In this document: positions 5,526 to 27,540 of the stretch, in pieces
Layout: every line of letters starts with the position of its first letter
How positions within the stretch are numbered: the stretch's first letter is position 1
Source: Ceratorhiza oryzae-sativae
Lineage: Eukaryota; Basidiomycota; Agaricomycetes; Cantharellales; Ceratobasidiaceae
Direction: 5' to 3'
Length of the DNA stretch: 64,000 nucleotides
NCBI GenBank assembly: GCA_030998015.1
Contig: JARWMV010000014.1
Span: 1-64,000, forward strand
Translations under genes and position numbers: made by a program
Notes under the pieces: model-generated
The model's database searches: none
Seen by the model: only the letters and a program-made list of their open reading frames with translations
What the model was told of the DNA's origin: nothing

Positions 5526-5530
5526 GACAG

Positions 5531-6305
5531 TGTTATGACCTGCCTAGCAGACATAACCTAACAACCGAATATTGTACAGATTTATGGCATTTTTCCTGAA
5601 GCGGAACAAACCATAAACAGGATCACGTGATCTCGGCGCTTACCCAACGATTAAGCGCCAGTGGTTACCCTGAACTCGCTCCAGCATTTCTCTCCCATGT
5701 TACCTGGAGCGAGGAGCGAGTTGTCACATGATCTCGGCGCTTACCAACAATTAAGCGCTGGTGGTTACCCTGAACTCGCTCCAGCGTTTCTCTCCCATGT
5801 TACCTGGAGCGAGGAGCGAGTTGTCACATGATCTCGGCGCTTACCAATGATTAAGCGCTGGTGGTTACCCTGAACTCGCTCCAGCGTTTCTCTCCCATGT
5901 TACCTGGAGCGAGGAGCGAGTTGTCACGTGACCTCGGCGCTTATTCAGCGATTAAGCGCCGGGTGCTTAAGTCCAAAAGGTCACATGACCCTCGGACCTC
6001 GCGCGGCTCTATAAGATTCGGAGCCGCACAAACTTAAGACAAACAATTACCTAACCCATAGTACTGTACATAACCTACACCTACTGCGGAGTGTGCTTAG
6101 ATAATACGTCCGCAGCCACCGCAGCCACAGGTATATAAGGAGGATAAAGCAAGACTGGATGCCTCAGCTTGCTTTATCTCGTCAACCACCATAGACCATA
6201 GCAAACACTGTAACTAGAACACTCAATACATACTGCATAGCACCAAACCGTCAACGCAGCCACTACTTAAGTGCTCCACAAGGGAGCCTCCAGAGGGTCA
6301 CGACA
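5531..6305 (+). repeat. 5' LTR of element B
   Basis: It starts TGTTATGACC and ends GGTCACGACA. It contains about three tandem units of roughly 100 bp (about 5,620-5,945). Each unit carries CACGTGA or CACATGA, an inverted pair GGCGCTTA/TAAGCGCC, and a palindromic CTCGCTCCAGC...GGAGCGAGGAGCGAG core. A TATA-like CTATAAG near 6,010 and GTATATAAGG near 6,131 are candidate promoters. No obvious TGG primer-binding site follows; the sequence after the LTR is TTATAAAGCAAGC. Confidence 0.93.
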
Positions 6306-6426
6306 TTATAAAGCAAGCTCTTAACTTAACTAGTGGCGAACATAAGTATACTGCACAGATACTAAGGGCTGAGTACACGAGAAAACCAGCTAACTCCTGT
6401 GATACATAAGAGAACACAAAGAAACT

Positions 6427-8262
6427 ATGTCACAGAGACCACAAACTCGATCTCAAAGCAGAGTGGCAAATAGTAGGCCACAATCACCCAAACCCATTGC
6501 TTCCCCAGAGGCGGAAGGTAACCCAGATGAGACCCTCCAAGGAATGCCAGGGGGGTTGCCACAAAACCCACGACCAGTGGCTCAACCCAACCCCACTCGG
6601 GCCCCCATCCTGGGAGGGGAAATAGGGGGAATACCACTCCGCAGCCCTCAACCGCCAATTCACCTGATAAATCCAGACCCAGAAGATATCTCAAATCCAG
6701 AGAGGGATGAGGTAGAAGATATGACCCGAACCATATACGAACAAGGCACGGCCTTGGCGGAAGAGGCAAGGACACAACCCCAGCCAGGTCCCGGAACCAT
6801 AGCCACTGCCAACCCTATTCACACCATTGCCACAGCCATCAGGGCGGGGCTCAAGGAACTTAGAGACAATAATCATAGGGAACTAGAAAAGGCAATCACG
6901 GGTATAAATCAGTGTCAAATATCACTAACCCGACAAGAAGGAAACGTGGACTGGATGGTAAGGTCTATGGAAACATCCAACAAAAATGTCCTCTATGTGG
7001 CAAAGAACCAGGACGACCTAAAAGCAGAAATGGGGAACCTGATAAAAGAATTAAAGGACATCTCCATGGAAATAAACCGGGTACTGGGAATGCAAGAGCG
7101 AAAGCTCGAAAGCTTAGAGAAGAAAACCGAAAACACAGGGGAGATCCTAATCGCACTAGAACAACGGGTAACCGATCTAGGAAATGAGCTCCGGAAAACA
7201 ACTGAAGCAGGAAGGCCAAGGGAAAGGACAGAAGAAACCAGGGGAAGAACTAGGGTGGTCATAGGAAGCCCCTCACGATCCCCCTCAGCCTCCCCAGTAC
7301 GAACACCTTTTCTGGGAAGAACCTTCCAGGCTGAGTCCACAATAAGACCCCGAACAGAACCTCCATCCCAAGCAAACCAACCTACCCTTGCTGCAAACCA
7401 CACTCCTAAGGAGGCAAGACTAGGGAGACCCAGCAAATTTAATGGGAAAAAGGGGAAGGAAGCAGAGAACTTCATAATCAGCATGGAACTTTTCTTTGCT
7501 GACTATGACGAATCAGCCTTTGATGACCGAAAAAAGATATCTGCGGTGCTAATGAACATGGAGGATGGGGAAGCAGCAAACTGGGCACAACCTTACCGCC
7601 GGAAACTACTAGCAGGCGAACACACAGGTATTCTTGCATCCTGGAAGGATTTCAGGAAGGGATTCCTGGATGCTTTTAATGACCCAGTCATAAAGGAAAA
7701 GACCATCCGGAAACTAAGGAAATTAACACAGACCAAGAGCGCATTGGATTATGCTACCCAATTCCGGATCCTGATCCAAGAGGTAGACTGGAACCAGGAA
7801 GCACTCAAGGACCAATTCAGGGAAGGGTTAAAACCCGAAGTACAACAAGAGATCTTAAGGATTGAAGTACTGGCAAATGAGGCTGAAGGTCCATCATATA
7901 CCTTAGATCAATTAATTGACTTTGCCTGCAAAATGGATGACATGCAGTTTGCAAACCAGAAAATGAATACAAGGACCAGCAACTCATCAAATTCAACCTG
8001 GGCACCAGCGAAATACAAACAAGGGGGAAACAAGCCTTTAGGGACCAGTGGCAAACAGGGGAATACCCAAACCAACAACATGGTAAGGATACCAAACAGT
8101 GAAAAGGACAGGCGAAGGAAAGAAGGACTCTGTATCAAATGCGGTAAATCAGGGCATGTCCTGAAGGAGTGCCGAGGCCAGTGGACCTACGACAAAGCTA
8201 AGATACAAGGGAAGGCCAGCAGACAAGTTGAGGAAGAAAGCAGCTCTGAGTCGGAAAACTAA
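6427..8262 (+). CDS. gag: Element B Gag polyprotein
   Basis: An intact 611-codon frame. It forms the particle that packages the retrotransposon RNA. Residues 1-110 are Pro-rich. A long helical/coiled segment (about 130-260) has heptad-like KLESLEKK repeats. A retrotransposon gag (capsid) domain covers about 330-520 (motifs FNGKKGKEAENFI, ALDYATQFRILIQEVDW). A CCHC zinc knuckle CIKCGKSGHVLKEC lies at residues 569-582. The C-terminus is acidic and Ser-rich. The ATG at 6,427 follows a 121-nt leader after the LTR. Length and order fit chromovirus Gag. No frameshift is seen here, in contrast to pol. Confidence 0.93.
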   Translation: MSQRPQTRSQSRVANSRPQSPKPIASPEAEGNPDETLQGMPGGLPQNPRPVAQPNPTRAPILGGEIGGIPLRSPQPPIHLINPDPEDISNPERDEVEDMTRTIYEQGTALAEEARTQPQPGPGTIATANPIHTIATAIRAGLKELRDNNHRELEKAITGINQCQISLTRQEGNVDWMVRSMETSNKNVLYVAKNQDDLKAEMGNLIKELKDISMEINRVLGMQERKLESLEKKTENTGEILIALEQRVTDLGNELRKTTEAGRPRERTEETRGRTRVVIGSPSRSPSASPVRTPFLGRTFQAESTIRPRTEPPSQANQPTLAANHTPKEARLGRPSKFNGKKGKEAENFIISMELFFADYDESAFDDRKKISAVLMNMEDGEAANWAQPYRRKLLAGEHTGILASWKDFRKGFLDAFNDPVIKEKTIRKLRKLTQTKSALDYATQFRILIQEVDWNQEALKDQFREGLKPEVQQEILRIEVLANEAEGPSYTLDQLIDFACKMDDMQFANQKMNTRTSNSSNSTWAPAKYKQGGNKPLGTSGKQGNTQTNNMVRIPNSEKDRRRKEGLCIKCGKSGHVLKECRGQWTYDKAKIQGKASRQVEEESSSESEN

Positions 8263-8279
8263 TTGGTCCTACCACTTCC

Positions 8280-8804
8280 ATGTTGGAGGACCCCAATATA
8301 ACCCCTACCGCAGATGTATGTTACCTCAAGAAGTCTAGTAATCAATCAATAATATACACTACGGTAGAGGGAATCATGGAACCAGCTAAAACGCTGATTG
8401 ACTCAGGATCTTCAACCAACTTCATCGATAAGGCCTATTCAAGGGAAAAAGGGATTCCAACCACTCCCCTCAAACACAAGAAATCAATTGTGGCCATTGA
8501 TGGAAATGAAATCAAGGATGCCATAGAAGAAAGGGCAGAACTAAACATCGAAGTGGAAGGGAAGACACTAAAATGCTCCCTTTATGTAATGACCCTAGGT
8601 GACACCGACATAGTCCTAGGGAAAGAATGGCTTGAAGAAGCAGAACCTATCATAGATTGGAAAGACCTTACCATCTCATACCCAGACGAAATCAAGGCAA
8701 GGGCAGCAAGTGAAAGCCTACAATCCCAGAAGAATTTAGGGATTTTGAAGACCTATTTGGGGAAGAAGGTTTCCGAGAACTTCCACCCCACCGAGGTAAC
8801 CTAG
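8280..8804 (+). CDS. Element B aspartic protease region of Pol
   Basis: This frame starts 17 nt after the gag stop in a different phase. It contains the retropepsin active site LIDSGSSTNFID (residues 38-49) and the downstream TDIVLGKEWLEEAEPIIDW motif that precedes RT in Ty3/gypsy elements. It should continue into RT. The frame is lost between about 8,711 and 8,735, where one base is missing from the expected run, so the last 25 or so residues of this ORF are out of phase. Separate gag and pol phases are normal in this superfamily; the protease/RT break is not. Confidence 0.88.
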   Translation: MLEDPNITPTADVCYLKKSSNQSIIYTTVEGIMEPAKTLIDSGSSTNFIDKAYSREKGIPTTPLKHKKSIVAIDGNEIKDAIEERAELNIEVEGKTLKCSLYVMTLGDTDIVLGKEWLEEAEPIIDWKDLTISYPDEIKARAASESLQSQKNLGILKTYLGKKVSENFHPTEVT

Positions 8805-8812
8805 ACTTCAAA

Positions 8813-9940
8813 ATGGACCTGATCGAGGGAGCGGAGCTGCCAAAGCCTGCAAAGAGGTACAGTATGTCACCAGCAGAAACAAAGGCGCTCAGGGAGTACC
8901 TAGAGGAGGAACTAAGAAACGGGAAAATAAGGCCCAGCCAGTCAGTTGTAGCTGCACCCTGTTTCTATGTGAACAAAGCAGATGGAGGGCTTAGGTTGGT
9001 AGTCGACTACCGTAAGATGAATGACATCACCAAGCCAGACAGGTTTCCACTTCCAATCCAAATAGAATTGATTGAGAGACTGAAGGATGCAACCATCTAT
9101 TCAAAAATGGATGTTCGATGGGGGTTCAACAACATCAGGGTAAAAGAGGGAGACGAATGGAAAACAGCTTTCAGGACAGGAGAAGGCCAGTTTGAATGCT
9201 TGGTCATGCCATTCGGAGTAAAAGAAGGACCAAGAACCTTTACCAGGTTCATGATGGAAAAGTTCCGTGACATAATAGACGATTATGTGGTAATCTACAT
9301 GGACGATGTACTAGTGTTTTCCAGAAACAGGGAAGAACACGTACAACATGTCAGGGAAGTGTTAAGAAGAATGAGGGAAAACCACCTCTTCCTCAAACCA
9401 CACAAGTGTCAGTTCTTCGTGAAGGAGGTAAGCTTCATTGGAATTGTCATATCCCCAGAAGGGATATCGATGGAAAAGGAAAAGGTAAAGGCAGTTCTAG
9501 AATGGCCAGAACCTAACACAGTAAAAGAAGTCCAAGCCTTCCTAGGCTTCGTGGGGTTCTATAGAAGGTGGATAGAGAAGTTTAGCACCTTAGCCAAACC
9601 CCTCACAGATCTCACCCAAAAAGATGTCAAATTCCTGTGGGAAAGAAAACAACAGGAAGCATTTGAAGCTATCAAAGAAGCAGTAGCAAGAGAACCGGTC
9701 CTGATCCACCCAAACCCAAACAGGCCATACATACTGGAAACAGACGCCTCAGGAGTGGCCATGGGGGCGGTACTAAGCCAAAAGGGTGATGACAACCGAT
9801 TGCATCCAATTGCCTTCCTATCGAAGAGCTTCACCCCACCAGAGAAAAATTATGACACCTACGACAAGGAGTTGCTTGCAATTGTTAGGTCCTTAGAGCA
9901 CTGGAGGTTATACTTAGAAGGGACAGAGGAACCATTGTGA
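8813..9940 (+). CDS. pol: Element B reverse transcriptase and RNase H
   Basis: 375 codons. The phase is already correct from about 8,723, upstream of the first ATG. RT motifs appear in order: RLVVDYRKMNDIT, FECLVMPFGVKEGPRTF, and the catalytic VIYMDDVLVFS (YMDD near 9,295-9,306), then the thumb FLGFVGFYRRWIEKF. RNase H follows from about 9,725 (YILETDASGVAMGAVLS) to NYDTYDKELLAI. The ORF stops at 9,940 where one G appears to be missing; RNase H continues in another phase. The protein copies element RNA into cDNA. It is closest to fungal chromoviruses by motif style. Confidence 0.93.
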   Translation: MDLIEGAELPKPAKRYSMSPAETKALREYLEEELRNGKIRPSQSVVAAPCFYVNKADGGLRLVVDYRKMNDITKPDRFPLPIQIELIERLKDATIYSKMDVRWGFNNIRVKEGDEWKTAFRTGEGQFECLVMPFGVKEGPRTFTRFMMEKFRDIIDDYVVIYMDDVLVFSRNREEHVQHVREVLRRMRENHLFLKPHKCQFFVKEVSFIGIVISPEGISMEKEKVKAVLEWPEPNTVKEVQAFLGFVGFYRRWIEKFSTLAKPLTDLTQKDVKFLWERKQQEAFEAIKEAVAREPVLIHPNPNRPYILETDASGVAMGAVLSQKGDDNRLHPIAFLSKSFTPPEKNYDTYDKELLAIVRSLEHWRLYLEGTEEPL

Positions 9941-11686
9941 TATACACTGACCATAGGAACCTCCAGTACTGGCAAAATGCCCAGATGTGGAATAGAAGGC
10001 ATGCCAGATGGTATCTCACTCTGGCACCCTTCAATTTTCAGATTGTGTACAGCCAGGGAAACTCTCACAGAAGCCAGATGCCCTTTCCAGAAGGAGCGAC
10101 CATGGGGATACCCCTATGGAACCACAGATCATGATTCCAGAAGAAAGGTTCATAGGTTTCATGGCAGAAGTACAGGGGAATTTCTGGGAAGAGCTTAAAG
10201 AAGCTCAGGAAGAAGACGAATCTATCAGATCCTTAAGGCTGAGTGTGGCAAATAAGGAACAACTACCGCCCTCAGTACAGAAGGAATTTAGACGGTATGA
10301 AATGAAGGAGGGCCTATTAAGGTATGACGATAGGCTCTACATCCCAGATGACAAGGACTTGAGGTTGAGTCTCCTTGAGGAGTGCCATGACGCCCCAGTG
10401 GCAGGTCATCAGGGACAAGCCCGAACACTAGAATTACTATCAAGGGATTACTATTGGCCAGGAATGAAGGCCCAAGTAAACCGATACGTGGAATCTTGTG
10501 AAACGTGTCAAAGAAGCAAAGGACACAAACAAGGCACTCCCTGAAGTCTTACCAATCCCATGGAAACCATGGGCAGATGTCGCATATGATTTCATCGTCA
10601 AATTACCTGTCTCAAAGGGGTACGACAGTATTTTGACAGTTGTAGATCGCTTCTCCGGCAGGCCCATTTTGTACCATGTCTGGAGAGCACCAATGCAGAA
10701 GAACTGGCAGAAATATTCATAAGGGAAGTATGGAGACATCACGGGACCCCAGAAACCACTGTCTCAGACCGAGGGCCAACCTTTAACAGCCAATTCCTAA
10801 AGGCCCTATACAAAGGAATTGGGACAAAGCCCAGATTCTCCACTGCTTTCCATCCAGAAACAGATGGTCTGTCGGAAAGGACAAATCAATGGGTAGAAGG
10901 GTTCTTAAGAACCTTCTGCAATTATAGACAAGATGATTGGGTAAAATGGTTACCCATTGCCGAATTCTGCCATAACAACCACGTAAATGCTACAACAGGA
11001 CAAACCCCATTTGAAACAGTATATGGAAAAAACCCAAGATGGGTTGTCCGAGAGGGAGAAGAACCATCTGAGGCACCCCTGCAGACAACATGCGTAATCA
11101 AATGGAAAAGGTATGGGATGAGGCAAGAGCCTCAATGGAATTACACCAACAAATGGAGAAGAAAGGGAGGGAATTCAAGGTAGGAGACAAGGTTTGGCTG
11201 CTCCTAACAAACCTCTCGTCCAAGAGACCCTCCAAGAAACTGGACAACCAAAAAGGGGGGCCCTTTGAAATCACAGAAAAGATCTCATCCCACGCATATC
11301 GCCTGGACCTACCTAAAACTATACGTGTACACAATGTATTCCATGTAAATCTCCTCTCGCCATTCACAGAAGATAAAGACTTCCGAAGAAGGCAGGCCAA
11401 GCCACCACCAATCATAACGGAAAAAGGAGAGGAGGAATACGAGGTGGACCACATTGCAAATTATGAATGGCGGAATGGCGAGCTGTTTTACCAAATCAGA
11501 TGGAAGGGCTACGACCCAATAGAAGACACAATGGAACGTGCCAGCAAGTTTGCTGACATGAAAGAGGTTCTAAATGACTTGCAAAGGCGCTTACCAGACG
11601 CACCAATGCCAGTCAAGACAAGTCAGCACTCAGGTGACTCGAAAGGCAGGCCAAAGAGAACCAAACGAGGATCTGGAAAGCTTTAA
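9937..11686 (+). pseudogene. pol: Element B RNase H end, integrase and chromodomain, frameshifted
   Basis: The product is readable across five or more phase changes. RNase H end IYTDHRNLQYW (9,937 on). Integrase zinc finger with AGHQGQARTLELLSRDYYW and CETCQ (10,400-10,515). DDE core: first Asp in YDFIVKLPVSKGYDSI (10,590), second in TVSDRGPTFNSQF (10,765), Glu in GLSERTNQWVEGF (10,870). GPF-type motif GGPFEITEKI (11,258). Chromodomain from EYEVDHIANYEW to WKGYDPIED (11,439-11,530). The last intact stretch is 11,090-11,686. The chromodomain usually targets insertion to modified chromatin. Every break can be explained by one base missing from a homopolymer. Confidence 0.9.
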
Positions 11687-11773
11687 AAGGAGCCATCCAG
11701 GATACCCAAGAAAGGCCAGAGCCCGCTCTACTACCTCACTTGCACCACAACACACCTGCGAAACCCCAAAAGC

Positions 11774-12592
11774 ATGCCTTTCGTCACTCACCCAATCGCA
11801 CATCCCAACCGTTACACCCCACTTGCCGAAAATCAGGTGGCCCCACTTCGGCAGCCACCCACCACCAGGCGGCCAGCACCCTACCCTGGCAGGGAAAATC
11901 GTCCTAAACCAGGGATGTACTGCTCCAGTGTGGAAGACGCCCAGAGGTACGCCGAACGACTGTTGCCAGGGGCTAACCTAGTGTACATCCCAAAGAAGTT
12001 AAGGGATGAAAGGAACTGGATTGACGATGACAAGTACCTGGATCCCAGGTTAGGGGTCCTGACATGGCATGGAAGCCGGAAGCCAACGACGAGAAACGCC
12101 TTGTTAAGAACACCGATGTATGTCGTCGACAATATCGTGGGACCAACAGTCGACGTGGTGACCAAGGCAGCAAGGCAACAGAGGAGGGCCACAGGCCAAA
12201 TGGCAGACGGAGGGGACTGGGAGGTGGAGCGCCGGGCAAAGGCACTGTTGGAGCAGTGGAAGCTGGCACCGGCGGCACCGTATGTGGGACTGCTTGAGGC
12301 CACTACCACTGATGAAATGTTTACTGCCATCAGGTTGAAGGAAGCAAACTTGGCCGACTTCCGTAACTGGGTGAAGGTACGCCCAAACCTGCACGGTTAC
12401 GACACAGATATGTCGAGCCTCACGGCAAGCCTGGAGTCCCTGGTGGTGAAGGAGGAGGAGCCAAGAGTAACGATAAAGGAACCAACCCCGGACCCGGCCC
12501 AAGAGGGAGTCCAAACGGATTGGGCCAAATGGGAGGATGAGCTGGCGGGCGCCTTGGAGGAAGTGCCCCTGCTGGCCCCGGAGCCCCTGTGA
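11774..12592 (+). CDS. Cassette ORF1, unknown function, conserved in both element copies
   Basis: A 272-codon intact ORF starting 88 bp after the integrase stop. I do not recognise a family. The first 50 residues are Pro- and basic-rich. The central part holds the conserved blocks DAQRYAERLLPGANLVYIP, RNWIDDDKYLDPRLGVLTW, VGPTVDVVTKAARQ and APYVGLLEAT. The C-terminus is acidic with WAKWEDELAGALEE. The same blocks occur in order in the decayed copy at 21,821-22,653, which is good evidence that it is a real protein. It lies convergent with ORF2; the two stops are 81 bp apart around an AT-rich segment that could end both transcripts. A structural or accessory role with Rep is possible but unproven. 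Confidence 0.82.
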   Translation: MPFVTHPIAHPNRYTPLAENQVAPLRQPPTTRRPAPYPGRENRPKPGMYCSSVEDAQRYAERLLPGANLVYIPKKLRDERNWIDDDKYLDPRLGVLTWHGSRKPTTRNALLRTPMYVVDNIVGPTVDVVTKAARQQRRATGQMADGGDWEVERRAKALLEQWKLAPAAPYVGLLEATTTDEMFTAIRLKEANLADFRNWVKVRPNLHGYDTDMSSLTASLESLVVKEEEPRVTIKEPTPDPAQEGVQTDWAKWEDELAGALEEVPLLAPEPL

Positions 12593-12672
12593 TTATCGGG
12601 CCTATCACACGTTTTTTGGAATGTCTTAAGAATAATTTTCATAATCATATAATAATACATTTCAAAATGTTT

Positions 12673-13211
12673 CTATTTTTTCTTGCCCTTGAGGGGCCGG
12701 GTATAGGGTTTTTTTGCCTTCTTATCCTTCCTAGTAGTACGGGCCGCAGAACCACCGGCCTGGTTCTCAGGCAACAGCCAGGGGGCCTCCCCCCCTGGGA
12801 GATCGGCCATATAGTTCTGGAAACATCCAGAACCAGAAGCCGCAAAGGGTGAGGCCTCAAACAAAGGGGCCGAGCCCTCCTCAAAAAACTCAGCAAGGGC
12901 AGCCTGGTGTTGCCGCTCCTCAAATAACCGGCAGTCCTGATCAACGAGCGCCCAGACACGCTCAAGGGTGGCCTCATGGGCCCGACCATCAAGGAGGATG
13001 CGCTCTTCTACAGAACAAGTTAGCTACGTGAGAACGACGAAGAACGAACACACATACCGGGCACCCCACAGAAGAACCAGTCCCCAACACCTCGATAGAA
13101 GTCTTCAAGGGAGGCGTCGCACACAGCATCACAGTAGGCGCAGTACTCCCCCTCAGGGAGAGACCAGCAGGTGCAGTCAAGGGGATTGTAGTTAAGGGAA
13201 ATAACACGCAT
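12673..13211 (-). CDS. Cassette ORF2, spliced Cys-rich antisense gene
   Basis: Two exons: 13,211-13,058 and 13,007-12,673, with a 50-bp intron (donor GTATGTGTG, acceptor CTGTAG), giving about 162 residues. The N-terminal 35 residues carry a compact cysteine cluster (DCTCWSLPEGEYCAYC, then AVC), likely metal-binding. The middle is acidic and helical (ALAEFFEEGS). The C-terminus is Lys-rich (KDKKAKKPY...KGKKK), resembling a nuclear signal. The diverged copy at 22,734-24,528 keeps the start, cysteines, donor position, acidic segment and basic tail. It is divergent from rep across a shared intergenic region of about 540 bp. No family recognised. Confidence 0.8.
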
Positions 13212-13749
13212 AGTAAAGACGGGATGAGGAAGGAAAACAACAAAACCACAAACATTAAAAAATCACGGTGCAACACAATAACTTGCACAAACATCAAAAC
13301 AAGGTCTGGTCAGGTGACACCAACAGACATGTGACCATCTGCCAGAAAACAAACAACAAAGCACGGAATCACATGACCTAGCCTAGTCACGTGACCACCT
13401 GCCAAAAACAAACAACAAAGCACAGGAATCACATGACCAGCCTAGTCACGTGAATATACGCTATCCCCTAACTACCGGAGGGGTCGGAGAGGGGGCACCA
13501 ACCGAAGTGGGGGAGCGGAGGCCCCGAGCGTAGCGAGGATCAAGGCCGACGCGGAGGAACGGATGGGAGGGCACCCCTCGGAGATGCGTCATCACCGAAA
13601 TAAGGTCATGTGATCACAACAAATGCAAGACGGAGTCATGTGACAATTGAAACGGACCTTGCAGCTTATATAGACAAGCACAAGACCCAAGATAACCCAC
13701 ACTCTCATGCTCTCTTCCCAGTCCCCAAATACCTCTAAAACTGTAAACG
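13212..13749. promoter_or_regulatory. Divergent ORF2/rep intergenic region with tandem repeats
   Basis: This is a shared upstream region for ORF2 (left) and rep (right). Two tandem copies of a unit of about 60 bp lie at about 13,330-13,449, each running from GTGACCA through CAAACAACAAAGCAC to GCCTAGTCAC. They supply CACGTGA and CACATGA boxes. A TATA-like TTATATAG near 13,668 precedes the rep start. A short stem CCCCT/AGGGG (13,465-13,469 with 13,479-13,483) has a 9-nt loop. The GC-rich block 13,476-13,600 recurs, duplicated, in the second element copy at about 24,655-24,965. No canonical TAATATTAC nonamer is present. Confidence 0.65.
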
Positions 13750-15034
13750 ATGCTAAGCGGAAATGGATCGAACGCGGCAACACCCCAGCCAAGCGGATCA
13801 AGCGAAGGGCAGAGGTCGGCGTCGCCATCGCCAGCGCCCTCGGTATCAAGCCGAGCCCCCTCACCCGCCTCTATGCGGCCTACGCCGACGGATCGAGGGT
13901 CCGAAGAGCCGACCGAAACCGCACCGGCCCCTCGGTTCCGCGTCCAGACCAGGGCGGTGCTGCTGACCTGGTCGAAGCTACACGATCAGCCCTCAAGTGG
14001 GCTTGTCGCCCGATACAAGGCGTTCTGCCGCCAACGGCCAAATCATTGGGCGACTTTGGTGGTGGTGGAACGCCACAACCCCGAGGAACCGAACTACGAC
14101 CCGGCCCGGCCCCTCCATGTCCACGCCCTCTCCATCAGTCAGGAGCGGAAGGGCGGCTGGAACACCCAGAACACCCGGTTCTGGGACTTCGAGGGGCAAC
14201 ACCCCAACATCCTGCCAAAGGACCTCAAGGACGGACCAGGAGGCAACCCTGCAAGGGAGGCTTTCAACTACCTCTGGAAGGACGTTGGAGCTAACGGCGA
14301 GGAGGTAGAGGAGCTGATGGCGGGGGACCTGACCTTGGAAAGGTTGGAGGAAATCCTGGTGAAGGGAAAGGGCAGGAAAAGGTCGAGGGCGGAGGCGGAC
14401 CTGGAGGACGGGGCGGAGATTGTTGCCTCGGCGACAAAAAAAGAGTACTACCAGGCATTCAAGTGCCTGCGCCCCCTCCAGATGGTGACAACGTGGAACT
14501 CGGTACAAGCATATGCTGAGTACACGTATAAGGAGGACCGGGGATGCATGCCTGCAATCCCGGTGGAGTTGGAAGCCCCAGAAGACCGGGCGCACATCGA
14601 CAGGGCGGACCGATGGTTTGCGGAAGAGCTGAGGAGAGGGAGGGGGTGTGCGCCATCGCATCCTGGTGATCGAAGGCGAAACAGGAACTGGGAAGACGGC
14701 GTATGCGCGATCCAAGGGCTCCCATAGCCGGATGTGCAATGTCTGGAACGTGGGGAATCTGTCGGAGGACGCCGACATCTGGATCCTGGATGACATGGTC
14801 CAGTCAAACGGGAAGTACTCGCTCAAAGCCCTGAGCCAGTACGAAGCAGACTTCACAGGCAGATATGCTCATGTGAAGTCAATGAAGGTACGACCGACGG
14901 TGATCCTGGGGAATAGCCGGTCGGCCATAATGAAGTGTTGGACGGACATAGAGGGGGAGGAAGGGGACCTATGGGTATCCAAAAACGTAGACTGGGTATA
15001 CTCAGGAGGGAAGCCATTTTTTGTTTTTCCTTAA
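13750..15034 (+). CDS. rep: CRESS-type Rep (HUH endonuclease plus SF3 helicase), one frame break
   Basis: The N-terminal frame (13,750-14,727) holds the rolling-circle HUH domain after a Ser/Pro-rich leader: motif I VLLTWS (residues 70-75), motif II PLHVHAL with H123 and H125, motif III YLWK with catalytic Tyr174 and Lys177. The C-terminal frame (14,648-15,034) holds the superfamily 3 helicase: Walker A GETGTGKT (14,675-14,698), Walker B DADIWILDDM (14,768-14,797), motif C TVILGNS. The two are out of phase at a G run (14,640-14,646); the second copy is in phase there. Known Rep proteins of this architecture nick and replicate circular ssDNA genomes. Endogenous Rep-like genes are known in fungi; residence inside an LTR retrotransposon is the novelty. 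The ATG at 14 codons further upstream in another phase (13,707) is not favoured. Confidence 0.88.
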
Positions 15035-15128
15035 AGGATAAAAATAAATTATCTTTGTATAAGCTGTTTTATTCTCAGACCATGTGTCGAGAAGTAAGCT
15101 TAAACAAGGAAATAAGCAAGGAGAAAGT

Positions 15129-15255
15129 AATCTCATGTAGCGTAGAGGTTAAGGGGTCTAGCCTGACTCATCATCTCCTAGCTGAGCAAATTACACATTG
15201 AACAGAAGGTTGTTGGTTCGAGTCCAGCGCCCTTAGCCTCCTCGATATATGAGAT
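15129..15255 (+). ncRNA. tRNA-like structure with Pol III A and B boxes
   Basis: A-box-like TAGCGTAGAGG (15,138-15,148) and a perfect B-box GGTTCGAGTCC (15,215-15,225), with a T-arm stem GTTGG/CCAGC, resemble a Ser/Leu-type tRNA. The outer ends ATCTCAT (15,130-15,136) and ATGAGAT (15,249-15,255) pair. GAGGTTAAGGG (15,145-15,155) pairs with CCCTTAGCCTC (15,230-15,240). The second copy at 26,551-26,672 has the same elements, with compensatory changes in the second stem. It is not a normal tRNA, because the acceptor is displaced. It could be a Pol III promoter or transcript, or a captured tRNA-derived sequence. Confidence 0.6.
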
Positions 15256-15318
15256 ACCTTTTACAAACTTTTAGAACCCAGAAAAGAAACATGCCTCGAG
15301 ATCCCCCAAGACATGTCC

Positions 15319-15332
15319 AAAGGGGGGGATAA
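15319..15332 (+). other. Polypurine tract of element B
   Basis: The run AAAGGGGGGGATAA ends exactly at the 3' LTR start. This is the expected primer site for plus-strand synthesis. The equivalent AAAGGGGGAGATAA precedes the LTR of the second copy at 26,769. Confidence 0.85.
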
Positions 15333-16108
15333 TGTTATGACCCGCCTAGCAGACATAACCTAACAACCGAATATTGTACAGATTTATGGCATTTTTCCCG
15401 AAGCGGAACAAACCATAAACAGGATCACGTGATCTCGGCGCTTACCCAACGATTAAGCGCCTGGTGGTTACCCTGAACTCGCTCCAGCGTTTCTCTCCCA
15501 TGTTACCTGGAGCGAGGAGCGAGTTGTCACGTGATCTCGGCGCTTACCAACGATTAAGCGCCGGTGGTTACCCTGAACTTGCTCCAGCGTTTCTCTCCCA
15601 TGTTACCTGGAGCGAGGAGCGAGTTGTCACGTGATCTTGGCGCTTACCAACGATTAAGCGCCGGTGGTTACCCTGAACTCGCTCCAGCGTTTCTCTCCCA
15701 TGTTACCTGGAGCGAGGAGCGAGTTGTCACGTGATCTCGGCGCTTACCAACGATTAAGCGCCGGATGCTTAAGTCCAAAAGTCACATGACCCTCGGACCT
15801 CGTGCGGCTCTATAAGATTCGGAGCTGCACAAACTTAAGACAAACAATTACCTAACCCATAGTACTGCACATAACCTACACCTACTGCGGAGTGTGCTTA
15901 GATAATACGTCCGCAGCCACTGCAGCCACAGGCATATATAAGGAGGATAAAGCAAGACTGGACGCCTCAGCTTGCTTTATCTCATCAACCACCATAGACC
16001 ATAACAAACACTGTAACTAGAATGCTCAATACATACTGCATAGCACCAAACCATAAATGCAGCCACTACTTAAGTGCTCCACAAGGGAGCCTCCAGAGGG
16101 TCACGACA
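15333..16108 (+). repeat. 3' LTR of element B
   Basis: 776 bp, starting TGTTATGACC and ending GGTCACGACA, followed by GACAG. It has the same three tandem units with CACGTGA as the 5' LTR and only scattered single-base differences from it. Confidence 0.93.
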
Positions 16109-16113
16109 GACAG

Positions 16114-17701
16114 GAGATTTGACTAGTGCTTTTTTCAGAATTTGGAAAGATGCTTCCTCATTCTTACCCCATTGCCAAGGGACATCTTTATGCAAGAGCT
16201 GGTACATAGGCCAAGCTTGTCCTGCAAAGTCCTCTATGAAGCAGTGATAGTAGTTGAAAAACCCTAGTGCTTCCTGCACTTCCTTTACCATACACGGTGT
16301 TTCCCAATTAACTGCTTCTGTGACTTTTTTAGGGTCTGTCTTGACTCCTTTGCCATTGGCAATTACACCTAGGTATTCCACTTCAGAAGTGTTGAAGACA
16401 CATTTTTCTAGGTTGCAATATAGCTGGTGTTTCCTGAGTCAGGATAACACCTCCTGAACGTGCTTCATGTGATCCTCAGGGTTTTTGGAAAATATAAGTA
16501 TGTCATCAAGGTATACTATAACTGACACATTTAGTAGATCCCTGAAGATCTCATTCATGAAGTTCTGGAATGTGGCTGGAGCATTACAAAGACTGAAAGG
16601 CATGACCAAGTATTCAAATAGACTGTATTTTGTTTTAAACACTGTTTTCCATTCATCTCCTTTAATTCTGACCAGATTATAGCCAGATTTAAGGTCCAGA
16701 GTTGTGAATACACATGCTCCTCTCAATTTCTCTACCAGGGTGGAAATGAGAGGTATGGGATACATGTTTTGTACTGTATTGGAATTAAGCAAGTGATAAT
16801 CAACACACATCCTTCTTTTGCCATTCCTTTTAGGAACAAAGATTACTGGAGAGCTGTATCACAATTTGGAAGGCCTGATCAACCCTTTATCCAGCTGTTC
16901 TTTGAGTATTCTCCTTAATTCCTTGTCATCCAAAGGGCAAAGGGGGTATACCAGTCCTTTTACTGGTGCATTTTGATCCTTGAGGACTATCTCAAGGTCA
17001 TATGGATGGTGAGGAGGTAGCTCTGTCACTTTGTCCTCAGAAAATACATCTGCATAGTCTTGGAGTTCCTCTGGGATGCCTTCCAGTGGTTTTAACACCA
17101 TGACACCTCCAGTGTCCCTAGGGATGCCTTCAAGAGGTTGGTAAGCCTTGACACCTCCTAGGTTTTCATTGAATGGGTCAAAGACACCACCAACATTGCC
17201 AAGAACTACATTAGAAGCAGGAACACAATTTTTTATACAGAAGTTTGAGTCAAAGGTAACATGTTTATTTGGCCAGTCAATATTTGGATTATGTTATTTG
17301 AGCCATGACATTCCTAGTACTAAGGTGTGTCTACCTATGTCTGCTACATTACAAACCAATTGTTCTTTATGACTACCTATTTCTAAAATAAAAACACATT
17401 CTGTATCAACAATACCAGAAGAGATTTCACAACCATCAATAACTTTTAATCTTTTTGGATTTTTCCTTTTATAAGTGGGTATTCAATACTGTTGGACTAG
17501 GCATGGGTGTATAAAGCATGAGGATGCACCTGAGTCAATTGTTGCCCAACTGTGCATGGTTTGCATATGGTTGATGCTTTTATTTTCTGGAGCAGATGGG
17601 ACTTGAGAGGTGACAAAATATATATTCAAAGGGGACATGTTGTCTACAGCATATATCTCAAAGTCCATACAGGTTTTTGCTTGATACATTTGCTCTGTCA
17701 A
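16114..17701 (-). pseudogene. Element A protease and reverse transcriptase remnant
   Basis: Read on the minus strand: protease with IDSGASSCFIHP (17,600-17,520), an RT N-terminal segment (17,101-16,859) with LRRILKEQLDKGLIRPS, the RT palm 16,810-16,439 with [17 protein letters not shown] and catalytic [12 protein letters not shown], and the thumb/RNase H start 16,381-16,114 with EALGFFNYYHCFIEDF. Stops and small gaps separate the pieces. CpG is nearly absent. The frame continues at 5,525 leftward after the element B insertion. Confidence 0.88.
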
Positions 17702-17704
17702 TGT

Positions 17705-21620: not shown

Positions 21621-21820
21621 CACTGCTGACACATGACCTGCTGAAAGACTTGCGCAAGTGCCTACCAGATGTGCCAATGCCAGAACAGCAGAGTCATAAA
21701 GCTAATGACTTGAGAGGTAAGGACAACAGGAGCAAATAGCTGCAGAAGGGGGATATAAGGCAGCTAAAGAGGGGCAGGAAATAATAACCACTTTGGCCTG
21801 CTACCCCTACTCTACCTATA

Positions 21821-22653
21821 ATGCTCCCTATCACAATGAAGAACTGCTTTGCCCCACTGGCTGACAGATACTCATCCTTTGTCAAAAGGACCAAACCAAG
21901 AAATGGGCAGAAGCACCCCTTCAGACCAGTTGAAGACAGGGCACTTTGGGCTGACATCAACTTATGCTCATCACTTTGTGATGCAACAAGGTATGCACAA
22001 CAAATCCTACCAGGTGCTAACATAGATTATATCTCTCAGAGGGAAAGGGACAAACAAAACTGGATTGACACAAATGTGTATCTAGATCCAAAAAGGGGGG
22101 CCCTCACATGGTGCCAACCTGGGGCACTGAAGACATGAAGTGCAATCATGTGCACAAAAATGTACATAATAGACAGCCAGGTTGGCCCCACAGTAGATGC
22201 TGTTGCCAAGGCAGCCAAGAGGCAAGGAACAAATGGGTGGCCAGTGCTCATTGCACCAAAGAGGGAGGAAGAAGTAACAAAGGACATGGTGGACTGGTTG
22301 AACACAAGGGTAAGGGAATGGCATGACCTTCCCCCAGCACCATATTGGGGTCTCCTTGAAGCATTAACAGGGGCAGATATGTATAATCTGATTGCAAGGA
22401 AGGGAGCAACCCTGAAGGACTTTGAGGAATGGTTAAAAATGTGACCAAAGGAGGACAACAAAGAGCTGCAGAAACTTGGGGACAGTATGGAGTCCCTAGC
22501 ACTCTTAGAAGGGAATGGGGAACCAGAAAAGGTGGCACCAGGACCTGCAACAGCAGAAGACTGGGAGGAATGGGAAAACAAGGAGATGACAAAGGACCTA
22601 GAAGAGGCAATGCAGGAAGAACTGCAGCCACCCTTTGGAGGAGGGTCATCATG
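21821..22653 (+). pseudogene. Decayed cassette ORF1 homologue
   Basis: Two frames (21,821-22,138 and 22,148-22,444) plus a tail to 22,653 match ORF1 of element B in order: DATRYAQQILPGANIDYI, NWIDTNVYLDPKRGALTW, VGPTVDAVAKAAKRQ, PAPYWGLLEAL and a final WEEWENKEMTKDLEEA. The N-terminal 60 residues differ but are also basic. Breaks include a stop after GALKT and a TGA at 22,442. Confidence 0.8.
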
Positions 22654-22733
22654 ATTAAAGTACCTGTAAATGACACAAACCCATTATGACACATGAATTC
22701 TCAGGAACAATATATATTCTTTAATATGAGATG

Positions 22734-24528
22734 CTACTTGTGTTTACTGGAGGAAGCCCTTGCATATGGCTTCACAGCCCTCTTCTTGCCCTTCAATAAC
22801 AGGATCCTGTGCAAACCAGACCCTCCCAGAAGACAGATAGGTGAGCCAAGGGCACTTGCCCCCAGTGTTATGGATCACTAACATTTTTCTATTATTTTAG
22901 TGTGCTCTGCCAACCTCAAGTGATGCATCTGTAATTTTCTTGAAATTAAATGAATTTGTACACATCTGAATTTGTACTATTTGTATTTTATTAAATATTA
23001 AAGAATCTCCTCTTTCCAACACATATTTTATTGTGATTTTATCTTAAGAACTCAGAGAGATATAGAGGTTGCAATATTTCCTCTTATCAGGAGATATTGA
23101 TTACAACATCGCACCACTCATATCTTGGCAACCGCTTATGCTATCAAAGTGATCTTATGTTCTATCAATAGCTAATCTTTGGCGGTATCTGCTGCCCAAA
23201 GATTGTTGCGATCCACCAGATCCTTGCACCGGAATGGCCCAAAGATCATTAGAATCTTACTGGACCATCAATCAAGATCTAATGACTCCAGTCAGTCAGG
23301 AGAGCCTTCCAAATTGATCCAGAAGCTTCTCTGACTCACTTTATGACTCACTGAGATGTAGCCTCTGTTCATTACATGTATATACTATGATAATATGATC
23401 TACAAGCCAATAGCAGGTCTCAGATGCATCAATGCCTTTGATCCACACCCTGTCTTTACTCTCTTATCTTATACTGGGCTAGGGTGTACCACAAGTATAG
23501 CAGTACCCTCTTTTGATGATCACACTGGCATGCATGTATCTATTTGGCTCTGGAATGCCCTCCTCAGGGTATAAAAGGACCTCCTCTGAGGCCCTTCCAG
23601 ACCACCACCCTCCTCTACTCAATCCAGACTGGTTATTGGTTTCTTTTCTCTTTCTATTTTTCTCTTGTCTGTGTGTGATTTGTTATATAACTAGTACTGA
23701 GGGATAAAGTACCATATTAGTTATATACTGTCTGAGTCATTGTATCTTATATACAGAGTTATATAAGGATACAATATTGCCTGATTGAGTGTGACATTAA
23801 GCACCAGCTATTAGAGGAAATATAAGTACCTGTAGCTGAGGAAGTACATGCATTAGGCAGCCCACCATCTATCCTATAAGCTATTGCTTAAGTCTAGTAT
23901 TAAGATTAGTATCAGTTAGTCCAAGCAACTAGGGCTGAACTACATTTGAGATATTTAAGGGAACCTGACCATAGTAGTCTTGCTGTTTATACCTATAAAT
24001 TAGTCAGTTTACACTGTGAAAGATTAAGACTGCCTTGAGTGTTACTTGATTGCATTGCAACTACTTTGAGCCTTCTTACTCTAGTCTAAGAAGTATTGAG
24101 TACAATTAGTGTATACTAACATATCTTCATTTGCTTAAGCTCTAGATATTCAAGTGTACCCTGACCCATAACACCCAGGGAGGTCTTCCATAAAATTACT
24201 GATGATACCTGACCCACTGTACTCAAGGGGTTCAAGGGGAGGAGGGGTGGGAGCCTGACCCTCCTCAAAGAACTTGGCAAGGGCAGCAAGATGCACTGCA
24301 GCCTCAGCCTCCTCCTCTTCACCAATGAAGAACAAGTGTCAGTCATGAATGTATGAAAGTATTAGTTTACATACTGGGGAGGCCCACATAAAGCCAGTCA
24401 CCCACACCACACTCAAAATTGGTAAGGGCAGTGTCACAAACCATGGAACAATAGGCACAGTAAACTGCAGGGGGCATAGACCAGCAGGTACAGTCCAAAG
24501 GATCATAGTTAAGGGTGATGGTATGCAT
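22734..24528 (-). pseudogene. Decayed cassette ORF2 homologue, split by LTR C copy 2
   Basis: Minus strand. The start codon is at 24,528, followed by LNYDPLDCTCWS and YCAYCSMVC with the same cysteine spacing as ORF2. The intron donor GTATGTAAAC lies at the equivalent place. Exon 2 has the acidic segment LAKFFEEGQAP and SGSGIISNFMEDLPG (to 24,179), then LTR C, then a basic tail LKGKKRAVKPYARA ending at the stop at 22,734. The LTR inserted inside the codons for the LPGG segment. Confidence 0.75.
22866..24173 (+). repeat. Solo LTR family C, copy 2, CCCAG duplication
   Basis: 1,308 bp from TGTTATGGATCACT to CCTGACCCATAACA. CCCAG flanks it at 22,861-22,865 and 24,174-24,178. TATA GGGTATAAAAGG lies near 23,570. 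A conserved short frame of about 64 codons downstream of the TATA recurs in the other copies but follows LTR sequence and is not taken as a gene. It is inserted in ORF2' of element B'. Confidence 0.95.
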
Positions 24529-25135
24529 GGTGAATGTGCAAAAGTAGGTGCAAGGGACCATATGATAAAAGGCCCACATTGGCAAAACAACAACACCAAG
24601 CAGAATAACAACTAAGTCACATGAAATTTTGAAGTCACATGACCATACACTATCTTGTTATACCAGAGGGGTTGGAGTGGGGGCACCAACTGAAGATGAC
24701 AAGCAGAGGCCCTGCACACAGCAAGGAACAGGCCAATGTGAAGGAGTGCAGGAAGGGCACCCCTCAGAGATGCATCATCACTGAAAACATGTAAACAGCT
24801 AAGTCACATGACCTATTGAAGTCACATGACCATATACTATCTTGTTATACTGGAGGGGTCAGAGAGGGGGCACCAACCAAAGACAACAAGCAGAGGCCCC
24901 AAGTGCAGTGAGGAACAGGCCAGTATCAAGGAGTGCAGGAAGGGCACCCCTCAGAGATGCATCATGAAAAACTGGAAACATCTATTTTGTTCTAGTCATA
25001 TGACCAGAAAACAACAAGAATGAGGATAGTAAGGGCAACCCCATCTGGATAAGGTGCCATATCTGATGTCCCCCACCCACTCTGCCTCCACTACCAAACC
25101 CAACAATGTGCTCTACCAGAATTGGGTAAAGCAAG

Positions 25136-26451
25136 GTGACACAAGTACAAAATGGGCAAGATGAACAACAGAGGTTGGTCTCACTGTTGCCAGGGCCTTG
25201 GGAAGCAAGCCCAGCCCCTGAGTTAAGTTCTTCACAGCATACATCAATGGAACCTGAGCCCAAAGAGCTGAGGCAGCAAGGGCAAAACAATGCCATGATG
25301 CCCAAATTTTGTGTCCAATCCTGGGCAGTGTTATTAACATGGAGTATGCTGAGGGATGAGCAACTGTCAGGGCTTGTGGCTTGGTAATAAGAACCTTGCC
25401 AAAACAGAATGTACAAATTGAAGAAGCCACCTAAACAACTTTAGGTATGAAGCCTCCTGCTGGAACCAGCCCAACCACTGGGCTACACTAGCAGTGGTAA
25501 GAACCAAACTATGATCACATTTGCCCCCTCCACATCCATGCCCTGATGATCAGCCAGGAATGCAAGGGCAGATGGAACACCCAGAAAACAAGATTCTGTG
25601 ACCACAAAGGGAACCACCCCAACATCCTGCAGAAGGATCTCAGGGACAGTCCAGGAGGCAACCCAGCATGTGATGCCTTCAACTACCTATGGAAGGCTGT
25701 TGGTGAGAATGGAGAAGAGGTGGAGGATCTAATGGCCAGAGATCTGACCCTGGAGAAGCTGGAGGGGATCCTGCAAAAAGGGTGTGGAGGAAAATGATCA
25801 CAGCAACAGGCTGACCTGAAGGATGGGGAGGAGATTGTGGCTGCAACCACCAAGGAGGAGTTCTACCATATGTACAAGCACCTCTGCCCCCTCCAGATGA
25901 CAACCACATGGAACTCAGTATGAGCATATGTGGATTACACATACAAGAAGGATGTGGGCCTCCTTGAGGCAATCCCAGTGGAACTGGAGAAGCCAGAAGC
26001 AAGGGAGCATGTGAACCAGGCAGACAGATGGTTCAAGGAGGAGCTCCAGCACAAGGGGGCAGGAATGTGACACTGCATCCTGGTGATTGAGGGAGAGACA
26101 GGGACTGGGAAGACCGCCTATGCCCAATCAAAGGGTTCACACAGCCAAATGTGCAACATGTGAAATGTGGGGGCACTGTCAGAGGATGCTGACATCTGGA
26201 TTGTGGACAACATGGTGTCCACAAGTGGAAGGTACTTGCTCAAAGCACTGAGTCAGTACAAGGTGGACTTTACAGGGCACTACAGCCATGTGAAAATAAT
26301 GAAGGTGCAACCAACAGTCATCCTTGGCAACAGCTGAGTGGCTATCACCAAGTGCTGGTCAGACATTGAGGGAGAGGAGGGAGAGAGATGGGTGGCAAGG
26401 AATGTGGAATGGGTAAATGCAGGAAGTCTGCTGTTCTTTGTTTTCCTGTAA
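25136..26451 (+). pseudogene. Decayed Rep homologue of element B'
   Basis: Colinear with the element B rep: motif I AVLLTWSML (25,325-25,350), motif II remnant near 25,530-25,550 (HIHAL), motif III AFNYLWK (25,678-25,698), Walker A GETGTGKT (26,094-26,117), Walker B-like DADIWIVDN and motif C TVILGNS. It has several stops, mostly TGA or TAG, at sites where element B has CGA or TGG. At the junction between the nuclease and helicase halves this copy is in phase, unlike element B. Walker B has lost one Asp. Confidence 0.85.
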
Positions 26452-26550
26452 AAATAATTAGCAATGCCATTAATTCCCCTTTGTGGGAAACCTGCTTAAC
26501 AATCCAGTTGTCATAAGGACAACATAGTGGCAATGGTGATGAAGAAATAA

Positions 26551-26672
26551 CCTCATGTAGCATAAGGGTTAAGGGGTCTAGCCTAATTCAACTTACATCA
26601 GCCAACTGAACTGTTTCATGTTGGAGGTTGCAGGTTTGAGTCCAGCACCCTTAACCCTCTTAATACATGAGA
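26551..26672 (+). ncRNA. tRNA-like structure, second copy
   Basis: Equivalent of 15,129-15,255. A-box-like TAGCATAAGGG (26,558-26,568); B-box GGTTTGAGTCC (26,633-26,643), whose one difference is a CpG-to-TpG change. The stem AGGGTTAAGGG pairs with CCCTTAACCCT, keeping pairing through compensatory differences from element B. CTCATG at the 5' side and CATGAG near 26,665 pair. Confidence 0.55.
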
Positions 26673-26768
26673 TTCTTTTTGGACAAGAGTCAAACAACTT
26701 GGTATTAGAAAGTAAGGACATTGTCACATCTTGAAGTCCTCCAAAATGTGACCCAAAGGGGGAGATAA

Positions 26769-27540
26769 TGTTATGACCTTCACAGACAGCCATAACATAA
26801 CAATAGAATTAGCCTATAGTTTATAGCATTTTATCCTAAGTCAAACAAGCTATAAACAGGGTCACATGACCTTGGTGTTTATCCTGGCACTTATGGTGGT
26901 TATCTAACTTGCTCCTGCAATTCTCTCCATTGTAACTTGGAGCAAGGAGCAAATTGTCACACAACCCTGGTACTTATAACTGTCACATGACCCCAGTGCT
27001 TATGGTGGTTGCCTAACTTGCTCCTGCAATTCTCTCCATTGTAACTTGGAGTGAGGAGCAAGTTATCACATGACCCTGGCACCTAACACATCACATGACC
27101 TTGGCACTTACAGTGGTTACCTAACTTGCTCCTGCAATTCTCTCCATTGTAACTTGGAGTGAGGAGTGAGTTATCATGTGACCCTGGTGCTTAACACATC
27201 ACATGACCTTGGCACTTACAGTGGTTACCTAACTTGCTCCTGCAATTCTCTCCATTGTAATGTGGAGTAAGGAGTGAGTTATCACATGACCTCAGCACTT
27301 AAATCACATGACCCTCAGACCTTGTGCAGCTCTATAAGATTCAGAGCCACAGCAACCCTAAGAGTGACTTACTTAATACTTGTTTACACCACACATGACC
27401 CATAACATACTGCAGACTGCAGAACAGGGATTGTCTGTACATACTACATAATACTATCAATATACACTGCAAATTACCACTGACAACATAGCCATTACTT
27501 AAGGAATCAACAGAGACAAGAAGATGGAGGGGTCTTGACA
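26769..27540 (+). repeat. 3' LTR of element B'
   Basis: 772 bp from TGTTATGACCTTCAC to GGGGTCTTGACA. It has four decayed tandem units containing CTTGCTCCTGCAATTCTCTCC...GGAG(T/C)(G/A)AGGAG and CACATGA in place of CACGTGA. The CTATAAG TATA-like site is near 27,331. Confidence 0.88.

What the first reader, a model, noticed from the sequence alone, without database searches (positions are those of the whole stretch)
11690..15332. CRESS-virus-type Rep gene carried inside an LTR retrotransposon
Seen: between the chromodomain integrase and the polypurine tract/3' LTR of a Ty3/gypsy element with intact 5-bp duplications there is a gene with both halves of a rolling-circle Rep: HUH motifs LLTWS, HVH, YLWK and SF3 helicase GETGTGKT, ILDDM, ILGNS. 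Known: such Reps come from circular ssDNA viruses and plasmids, and endogenous copies exist in fungal genomes. Inference: a copy-and-paste RNA element has acquired a DNA replication initiator. That could allow replication of the extrachromosomal cDNA circle, rolling-circle spread, or competition with ssDNA mycoviruses. I know of no described LTR element with this content.
Basis: partly seen in the sequence, partly recalled or inferred. Interest (0 to 1): 0.93.

Follow-up and report, generated by a model that had tools for sequence, protein, structure and literature searches.

The report
Retrotransposon carrying a viral replication gene
A family of copy-and-paste mobile elements in this eukaryotic genome carries, as a built-in and selectively maintained part, a replication gene of the type used by small circular single-stranded DNA viruses, which joins two ways of copying DNA that are normally separate.

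Summary
Window 5531-16108 is a Ty3/Gypsy chromodomain LTR element with GACAG duplicated on both sides. Between integrase and 3' LTR lies a gene with all Rep motifs, including a GRS-like motif of geminivirus/genomovirus type. In this copy the frame breaks just before Walker A; 31 of 123 scored genomic places have no stop in the match and an open frame of 428 residues or more.

It is not a chance insertion. About 160 Rep loci were counted from capped lists. In all 21 distinct copies within 20 fetched stretches, ORF-A lies upstream and an LTR downstream; 7 of 10 further elements have their own 5-bp duplications. A diverged lineage (about 70% protein identity) keeps the cassette. Rep dN/dS between lineages is 0.07-0.21, like the integrase end.

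The cassette also holds ORF-A, an antisense gene with an intron-like stretch, a conserved non-coding core and a 128-nt hairpin with compensatory changes.

Best mechanism, inferred: Rep starts DNA replication on the element's own extrachromosomal circles. Against: the core shows no above-chance stem-loop; no circle data exist; no profile or structure confirmed the Rep. Anti-silencing is the main rival.

The parts
5526..5530 (.). 5' target-site duplication GACAG (3' copy at 16109-16113)
5531..6305 (+). 5' LTR, with roughly 100-bp tandem repeats
6427..8262 (+). gag
   Evidence: Pfam Retrotrans_gag, Ty3_capsid
8280..8804 (+). aspartyl protease
   Evidence: Pfam RVP_2
8813..9940 (+). reverse transcriptase and RNase H
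10008..11686 (+). integrase region (frame interrupted in this copy): H2C2 zinc finger, C-terminal chromodomain
11774..12592 (+). ORF-A, 272 aa, no known domain, with relatives in diverged lineages; dN/dS 0.20-0.36
12673..13211 (-). gene B, antisense, about 162 aa if spliced; exon 1 13211-13058, intron-like stretch 13057-13008 (GTATGT...CTAAC...TAG), exon 2 13007-12673 (splicing inferred from sequence and conservation only)
13403..13596 (.). conserved non-coding core between the divergent gene B and Rep: origin or two-way promoter
   Evidence: 74-77% identical to the diverged lineage, alignment A3; no hairpin above shuffles
13750..14727 (+). Rep, HUH part: motif I LLTWS, II LHVHA, GRS-like FWDFEGQHPNILP, III YLWK
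14648..15034 (+). Rep, SF3 helicase part (other frame in this copy): GETGTGKT, WILDDM, ILGN
15129..15256 (+). conserved hairpin with compensatory changes and tRNA-like A- and B-box motifs
15319..15329 (+). polypurine tract
15333..16108 (+). 3' LTR
16109..16113 (.). 3' target-site duplication GACAG
21633..27336 (+). second, decayed copy of the same cassette, nearer to the diverged lineage: integrase end, ORF-A relative 21818-22609, gene B and core relative from 24229, core duplicated at 24607-24778 and 24794-24965, Rep relative about 25124-26445 (4 TGA in the helicase part), repeat-bearing LTR-like stretch 26874-27306

Best explanation
A Ty3/Gypsy chromodomain LTR retrotransposon lineage carries, between integrase and 3' LTR, a replication cassette related to geminivirus/genomovirus-like ssDNA replicons: a divergent gene pair (antisense gene B and Rep) with a conserved core between them. 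Shown: the cassette sits at a fixed place in the element, is inserted with it, is older than the split of the lineages seen, and is under purifying selection. Inferred: Rep made by the element binds a site in its own DNA (the core, or less likely the hairpin), nicks it and unwinds it, so that unintegrated DNA circles formed after reverse transcription are copied as DNA before integration or transcription. My confidence in the identity part is about 0.9; the number below is for the mechanism.
For: Both Rep domains keep their motifs. Rep dN/dS is 0.07-0.12 against the diverged lineage, 0.10 for L004-L033 and 0.19-0.21 between L004, L025 or L035 and L041 or L042; the integrase end gives 0.09-0.21 between lineages. 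Motif order and GRS match those printed for a Botrytis ssDNA element (PMC8309985) and genomoviruses (PMC10177065). A non-coding core between the divergent genes is 74-77% identical to the diverged lineage, where 132 of 245 Rep third codon positions differ (L004 against L037). Fixed position. Own 5-bp duplications in 7 of 10 further elements.
Against: No stem-loop in the core above shuffles in any of six stretches folded. No Pfam, PHROGs, NCBIfam or PDB match; Pfam Viral_Rep and Gemini_AL1 found nothing in the genome, though those two searches rang in no control either. Ordinary LTR integration with duplications explains the copy number without Rep. No transcript or circle data. The core could be a promoter: CACRTGA motifs are dense in the gene B-Rep interval and in the LTRs.
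Confidence: 0.4

Rival explanations
1. Rep (perhaps with ORF-A and gene B) works as a counter-silencing or host-reprogramming factor, not as a replication starter for the element.
For: Copies differ largely by CpG transitions: in the first Rep part 347 of 525 differences from the window copy were CpG-context transitions, and TGA is the commonest stop, as expected if the host methylates the element. A review passage reports that geminiviral Rep lowers MET1 and CMT3 (PMC6338049, passages). Antisense extra ORFs between pol and 3' LTR are thought regulatory in plant Retand elements (PMC11963269, passages).
Against: Does not explain why nuclease and helicase motifs both survive, nor the conserved core.
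Confidence: 0.25
2. The gene B-core-Rep block is itself a small ssDNA replicon that rides inside the LTR element and can replicate alone.
For: Divergent genes around a conserved core resemble an ambisense ssDNA replicon; in the second window copy the core is doubled.
Against: No stand-alone copy seen among those read: 103 of 123 Rep places have an ORF-A place upstream, 97 of them at 0.9-1.8 kb. Of the other 20, two begin within 500 bases of a contig's first base (C53, C62) and C164 has ORF-A when read directly (L023); most of the rest were not read. No recognisable capsid.
Confidence: 0.12
3. Rep serves against ssDNA mycoviruses, by competition or as a small-RNA source.
For: The Rep has the motif set of genomovirus-type Reps.
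Against: Selection on an enzyme inside a selfish element is not explained by host defence; a small-RNA source needs no intact protein.
Confidence: 0.08
4. Functionless passenger, amplified with the element.
For: Many scored copies have stops: only 45 of 123 have none in the match. Within groups dN/dS rises to 0.22-0.38.
Against: dN/dS 0.07-0.12 between lineages with near-saturated synonymous change.
Confidence: 0.05

Closest known systems
Ty3/Gypsy chromoviruses (chromodomain LTR retrotransposons)
   Same: Gag, protease, RT/RNase H, integrase with chromodomain, LTRs, polypurine tract, 5-bp duplication
   Different: 3.6-kb region with ORF-A, antisense gene B, conserved core, Rep and hairpin between integrase and 3' LTR
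Geminivirus-like TIR transposon of Tuber melanosporum and other endogenous Rep sequences (Liu et al. 2011, PMC3198968; abstract and sections 7 and 8 read)
   Same: Rep-type gene multiplied inside a transposon of a fungus; [quoted passage not shown]
   Different: The Tuber element has terminal inverted repeats, transposase ORFs and an interrupted Rep; no LTR or reverse transcriptase is described for it in the sections read
Genomovirus and Botrytis ssDNA element Reps (PMC8309985, PMC10177065; passages read)
   Same: Order of motifs I, II, GRS, III, Walker A, Walker B, motif C; HPNILP identical to the Botrytis GRS
   Different: Some 70 residues precede motif I here, more than in viral Reps (recalled); carried in a retroelement; no capsid or nonanucleotide stem-loop found
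LTR elements with captured or antisense extra ORFs (bdelloid ORF3, PMC5408684, abstract and passages; plant Retand, PMC11963269, passages)
   Same: Extra ORFs beside gag and pol, antisense between pol and 3' LTR in Retand
   Different: Rep gene; term search of PMC5408684 gave 0 for rolling-circle, of PMC11963269 0 for Rep protein and 0 for rolling

Membership tests
Ty3/Gypsy chromovirus | Order gag-PR-RT-RH-IN with chromodomain between LTRs | tested here: met
   the integrase catalytic core itself was not scanned
Ty3/Gypsy chromovirus | 5-bp target-site duplication | tested here: met
   window GACAG; 7 of 10 further elements, one not readable at its 3' end, two mismatched
Rep of the geminivirus/genomovirus type | HUH motifs I-III and SF3 Walker A, B, motif C in order | tested here: met
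   11 of 16 alignment rows match all six; two decayed full-length copies and three partial rows do not
Rep of the geminivirus/genomovirus type | GRS motif between II and III | tested here: met
   (12 of 16 rows; L042 and three partial rows do not match the pattern); compared with strings
Rep of the geminivirus/genomovirus type | Match to a Rep profile (Pfam Gemini_AL1, Viral_Rep) | tested here: not met
   117 and 118 also empty but rang in no control
Rep of the geminivirus/genomovirus type | HUH and SF3 folds | tested here: inconclusive
   model pLDDT 32.5; BFVD matches not meaningful
CRESS DNA virus genome | Capsid gene | tested here: inconclusive
   ORF-A and gene B match no family; ORF-A model pLDDT 37.9
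CRESS DNA virus genome | Nonanucleotide in an origin stem-loop | tested here: not met
   core folds no better than shuffles; the hairpin 15129-15256 was not compared with a nonanucleotide
CRESS DNA virus genome | Circular ssDNA form | not testable with these tools
   needs DNA from cells
Tuber-type geminivirus-like TIR transposon | Terminal inverted repeats and transposase | tested here: not met
   element ends are LTRs with duplications

The most novel reading that the evidence does not exclude
A retroelement with two replication modes: RNA-templated copying by reverse transcriptase and Rep-driven rolling-circle copying of its own extrachromosomal DNA from an internal origin, with a divergent gene pair resembling an ssDNA replicon built into the provirus.
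Probability: 0.35. Interest if true: 0.96.

Novelty: new variant of a known kind. Interest (0 to 1): 0.86.

Why it matters
Reverse-transcribing elements and Rep-encoding ssDNA replicons are treated as separate replication classes. A selectively maintained, multi-copy, multi-lineage LTR element with both enzyme sets makes it testable whether a retroelement can amplify its DNA after reverse transcription, and gives a route by which replicon genes pass between mobile-element classes.

Tried and rejected
Rejected: chance insertion at one locus; passenger without function; Helitron (the helicase motifs fit SF3 rather than SF1; recalled knowledge, no Helitron search was made).

Led nowhere: Pfam, PHROGs, NCBIfam and PDB searches with Rep; structure models of Rep and ORF-A, both too poor, and the viral fold search on the Rep model; five scans of viral contigs, of which one search gave 9 contigs with no Rep relative (best E 0.066 among 498 open frames) and the one contig (L052) was fetched but not examined; one search found no usable stretch; plasmid tblastn gave 3 records at E 1 or worse; Rfam gave nothing over a family's cut-off; a search for the hydrophobin family to place the host was empty, in its controls too. 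The 9-bp stem across the core is fully paired in 9 of 10 rows, but its changes are CpG-type transitions, so I count it inconclusive. Whether the next-nearest integrase lineages lack the cassette could not be read. L040 shows integrase and an ORF-A relative but no Rep match by blastn in its 4.5 kb.

Literature: no paper with a Rep gene in an LTR element appeared in the listings; these cover only the held open-licence library, and searches failed or timed out; paper not held. One search failed; the same paper was read later.

Rows dropped before counts: one fragment row of 124 (Rep), three of 112 (RT), six of 143 (ORF-A) and the one unlisted match of 151 were not in the tables.
Full report
Observation. 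The window lies in an unnamed 48.8-Mb genome in 253 contigs. It is eukaryotic (a Maf1 match at 57824-58882) and, I think, fungal, from the short intron-like stretch with fungal-type signals; no call names the organism. The element spans 5531-16108 with GACAG on both sides. Its pol and Rep frames are interrupted in this copy, so this copy is decayed.

What the Rep is. An unbroken natural copy (L004, 428 residues) has motif I LLTWS, motif II LHIHA, a GRS-like FWDFEGQHPNILP, motif III YLWK, Walker A GETGTGKT, Walker B WILDDM and ILGN. The same order, with similar strings, is printed for a Botrytis ssDNA element (PMC8309985, passages) and for genomoviruses (PMC10177065, passages). No profile library recognises it, and the predicted model has mean pLDDT 32.5; its order of strands and helices fits an HUH domain but proves nothing. 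Membership in the geminivirus/genomovirus Rep group therefore rests on motifs, their order and spacing.

Part of the element, not an accident. The helicase-part list (150 places) merged with the HUH-part list (123 places) gives 160 Rep loci. The lists are capped, so copies are missing, but a copy split by an insertion may be counted twice. I fetched the 20 best-scoring places of 123 (the window's own among them) as stretches of up to 10 kb; they hold 21 distinct Rep copies. All 21 have ORF-A, in one case cut short, upstream and LTR sequence downstream, and 20 the integrase end; the exception is one copy in L024, cut within ORF-A. Of 109 RT places 83 have a Rep place within 9 kb downstream on the same strand; 26 do not, and I did not read those one by one. 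Of 40 scored tail-LTR junctions 36 have Rep within 1.5 kb upstream. Of 123 Rep places 103 have ORF-A upstream. Ten elements besides the window's were read at or near both ends: 7 have exact 5-bp duplications, all different; one could not be read at the 3' end (L025); two mismatch (L029, L034), L034 having the same 5' flank as L026.

Age and selection. By identity to the window's Rep, 74 of 123 places are at 86% or more and 49 at 72-84%, and a third lineage (L037-L039) has integrase end (67-72%) and Rep helicase (about 70%) at similar distance. L037-L039 carry gene B, core and Rep after the integrase end, with ORF-A whole or in pieces, so the cassette was there before the lineages split. Nei-Gojobori dN/dS for Rep is 0.10 for L004-L033, 0.19-0.21 between L004, L025 or L035 and the decayed L041 and L042, and 0.07-0.12 against the third lineage, where synonymous change is near saturation and in some pairs could not be computed. 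Within groups it is higher (0.22-0.38), as expected for decaying copies. ORF-A gives 0.20-0.36, the integrase end 0.09-0.21 between lineages and 0.80 between the close pair L037-L039.

The rest of the cassette. Gene B is antisense: its ATG is conserved in all 10 copies aligned, and a 50-nt stretch with GTATGT, CTAAC and TAG in the window copy is recognisable, with changes, in the others. A frame with the exon 1 words was found in all 25 rows scanned (24 distinct copies) and one with the exon 2 words in 24 of 25, some with frame damage. Within a 45-codon part of exon 2, window against L032 shows 0, 0 and 16 changes at codon positions 1, 2 and 3; against the third lineage the ratio is 0.33-0.70, so constraint is strong within subfamilies and looser between lineages. 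Exon 1 gave no usable ratio. An intron can survive reverse transcription here because the gene is antisense to the genomic RNA (inference).

Non-coding parts. The core 13403-13596 aligns at 74-77% with the third lineage. Folded as DNA, four 149-nt stretches gave z-scores of 0.05, 1.18, 0.96 and -0.83 and two shorter ones 0.26 and 0.17, so no origin stem-loop is shown. The gene B-Rep interval holds 8 and the two LTRs 7 and 9 CACRTGA sites, palindromes counted twice, or 9-15 per kb against 0.77 per kb in 16200-64000, which also fits a promoter. Between Rep stop and polypurine tract, 15129-15256 forms a hairpin kept in all 8 copies aligned: 94.3% of cells paired (0 of 500 shuffles as high), 7 pairs with change on both sides (1 of 500), covariation score 0.201 (0 of 500); the number of further pair types is no higher than in shuffles (242 of 500), and relatedness inflates such tests. 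As + strand RNA the z-scores are -3.7, -5.9 and -4.8 in three lineages; as DNA -1.6, -4.5 and -3.7 on that strand and 0.1 on the other for the window. It carries tRNA-like A- and B-box motifs in part of the copies (motif names recalled); ARAGORN calls no tRNA and Rfam gives no match there. It works best as RNA, so I favour packaging, dimerisation or processing of the genomic RNA over an origin.

Mechanism. I take self-directed DNA replication of extrachromosomal circles as most likely (0.4), because only this uses nuclease, helicase and an own-DNA target together. Counter-silencing (0.25) is the strongest rival: copies are eroded mostly at CpG in Rep and geminiviral Rep is reported to reduce host DNA methyltransferases (PMC6338049, passages).

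Novelty. [quoted passage not shown]). Captured and antisense ORFs in LTR elements are known too (PMC5408684, PMC11963269). I found no description of a maintained Rep in an LTR element in the searches listed, which cover one open-licence library only.

Noticed in passing
15129-15256: Conserved hairpin with compensatory changes and tRNA-like A and B boxes between Rep stop and polypurine tract; no Rfam match.
   Followed up: yes
21633-27336: Second, decayed Rep cassette of a diverged lineage in the same window, with its core duplicated and a 108-nt repeat array.
   Followed up: partly
6427-16108: The window copy looks like a mosaic: gag, RT and integrase differ from 10 other copies by medians of 0.2-0.4% outside CpG, but Rep to 3' LTR by 1.5-2.6%.
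   Followed up: partly
L026 and L034: Elements on two contigs share the same 5' flank but have different 3' flanks: recombination, duplication or assembly error.
   Followed up: no
5531-6305 and 15333-16108: LTRs vary by whole 100-bp repeat units between and within elements; the units hold inverted repeats.
   Followed up: no
16070-19048: Another Ty3-type element (gag and RT, minus strand) flanks the insertion.
   Followed up: no
3528-3959: Partial LTR of the same family in reverse orientation.
   Followed up: no
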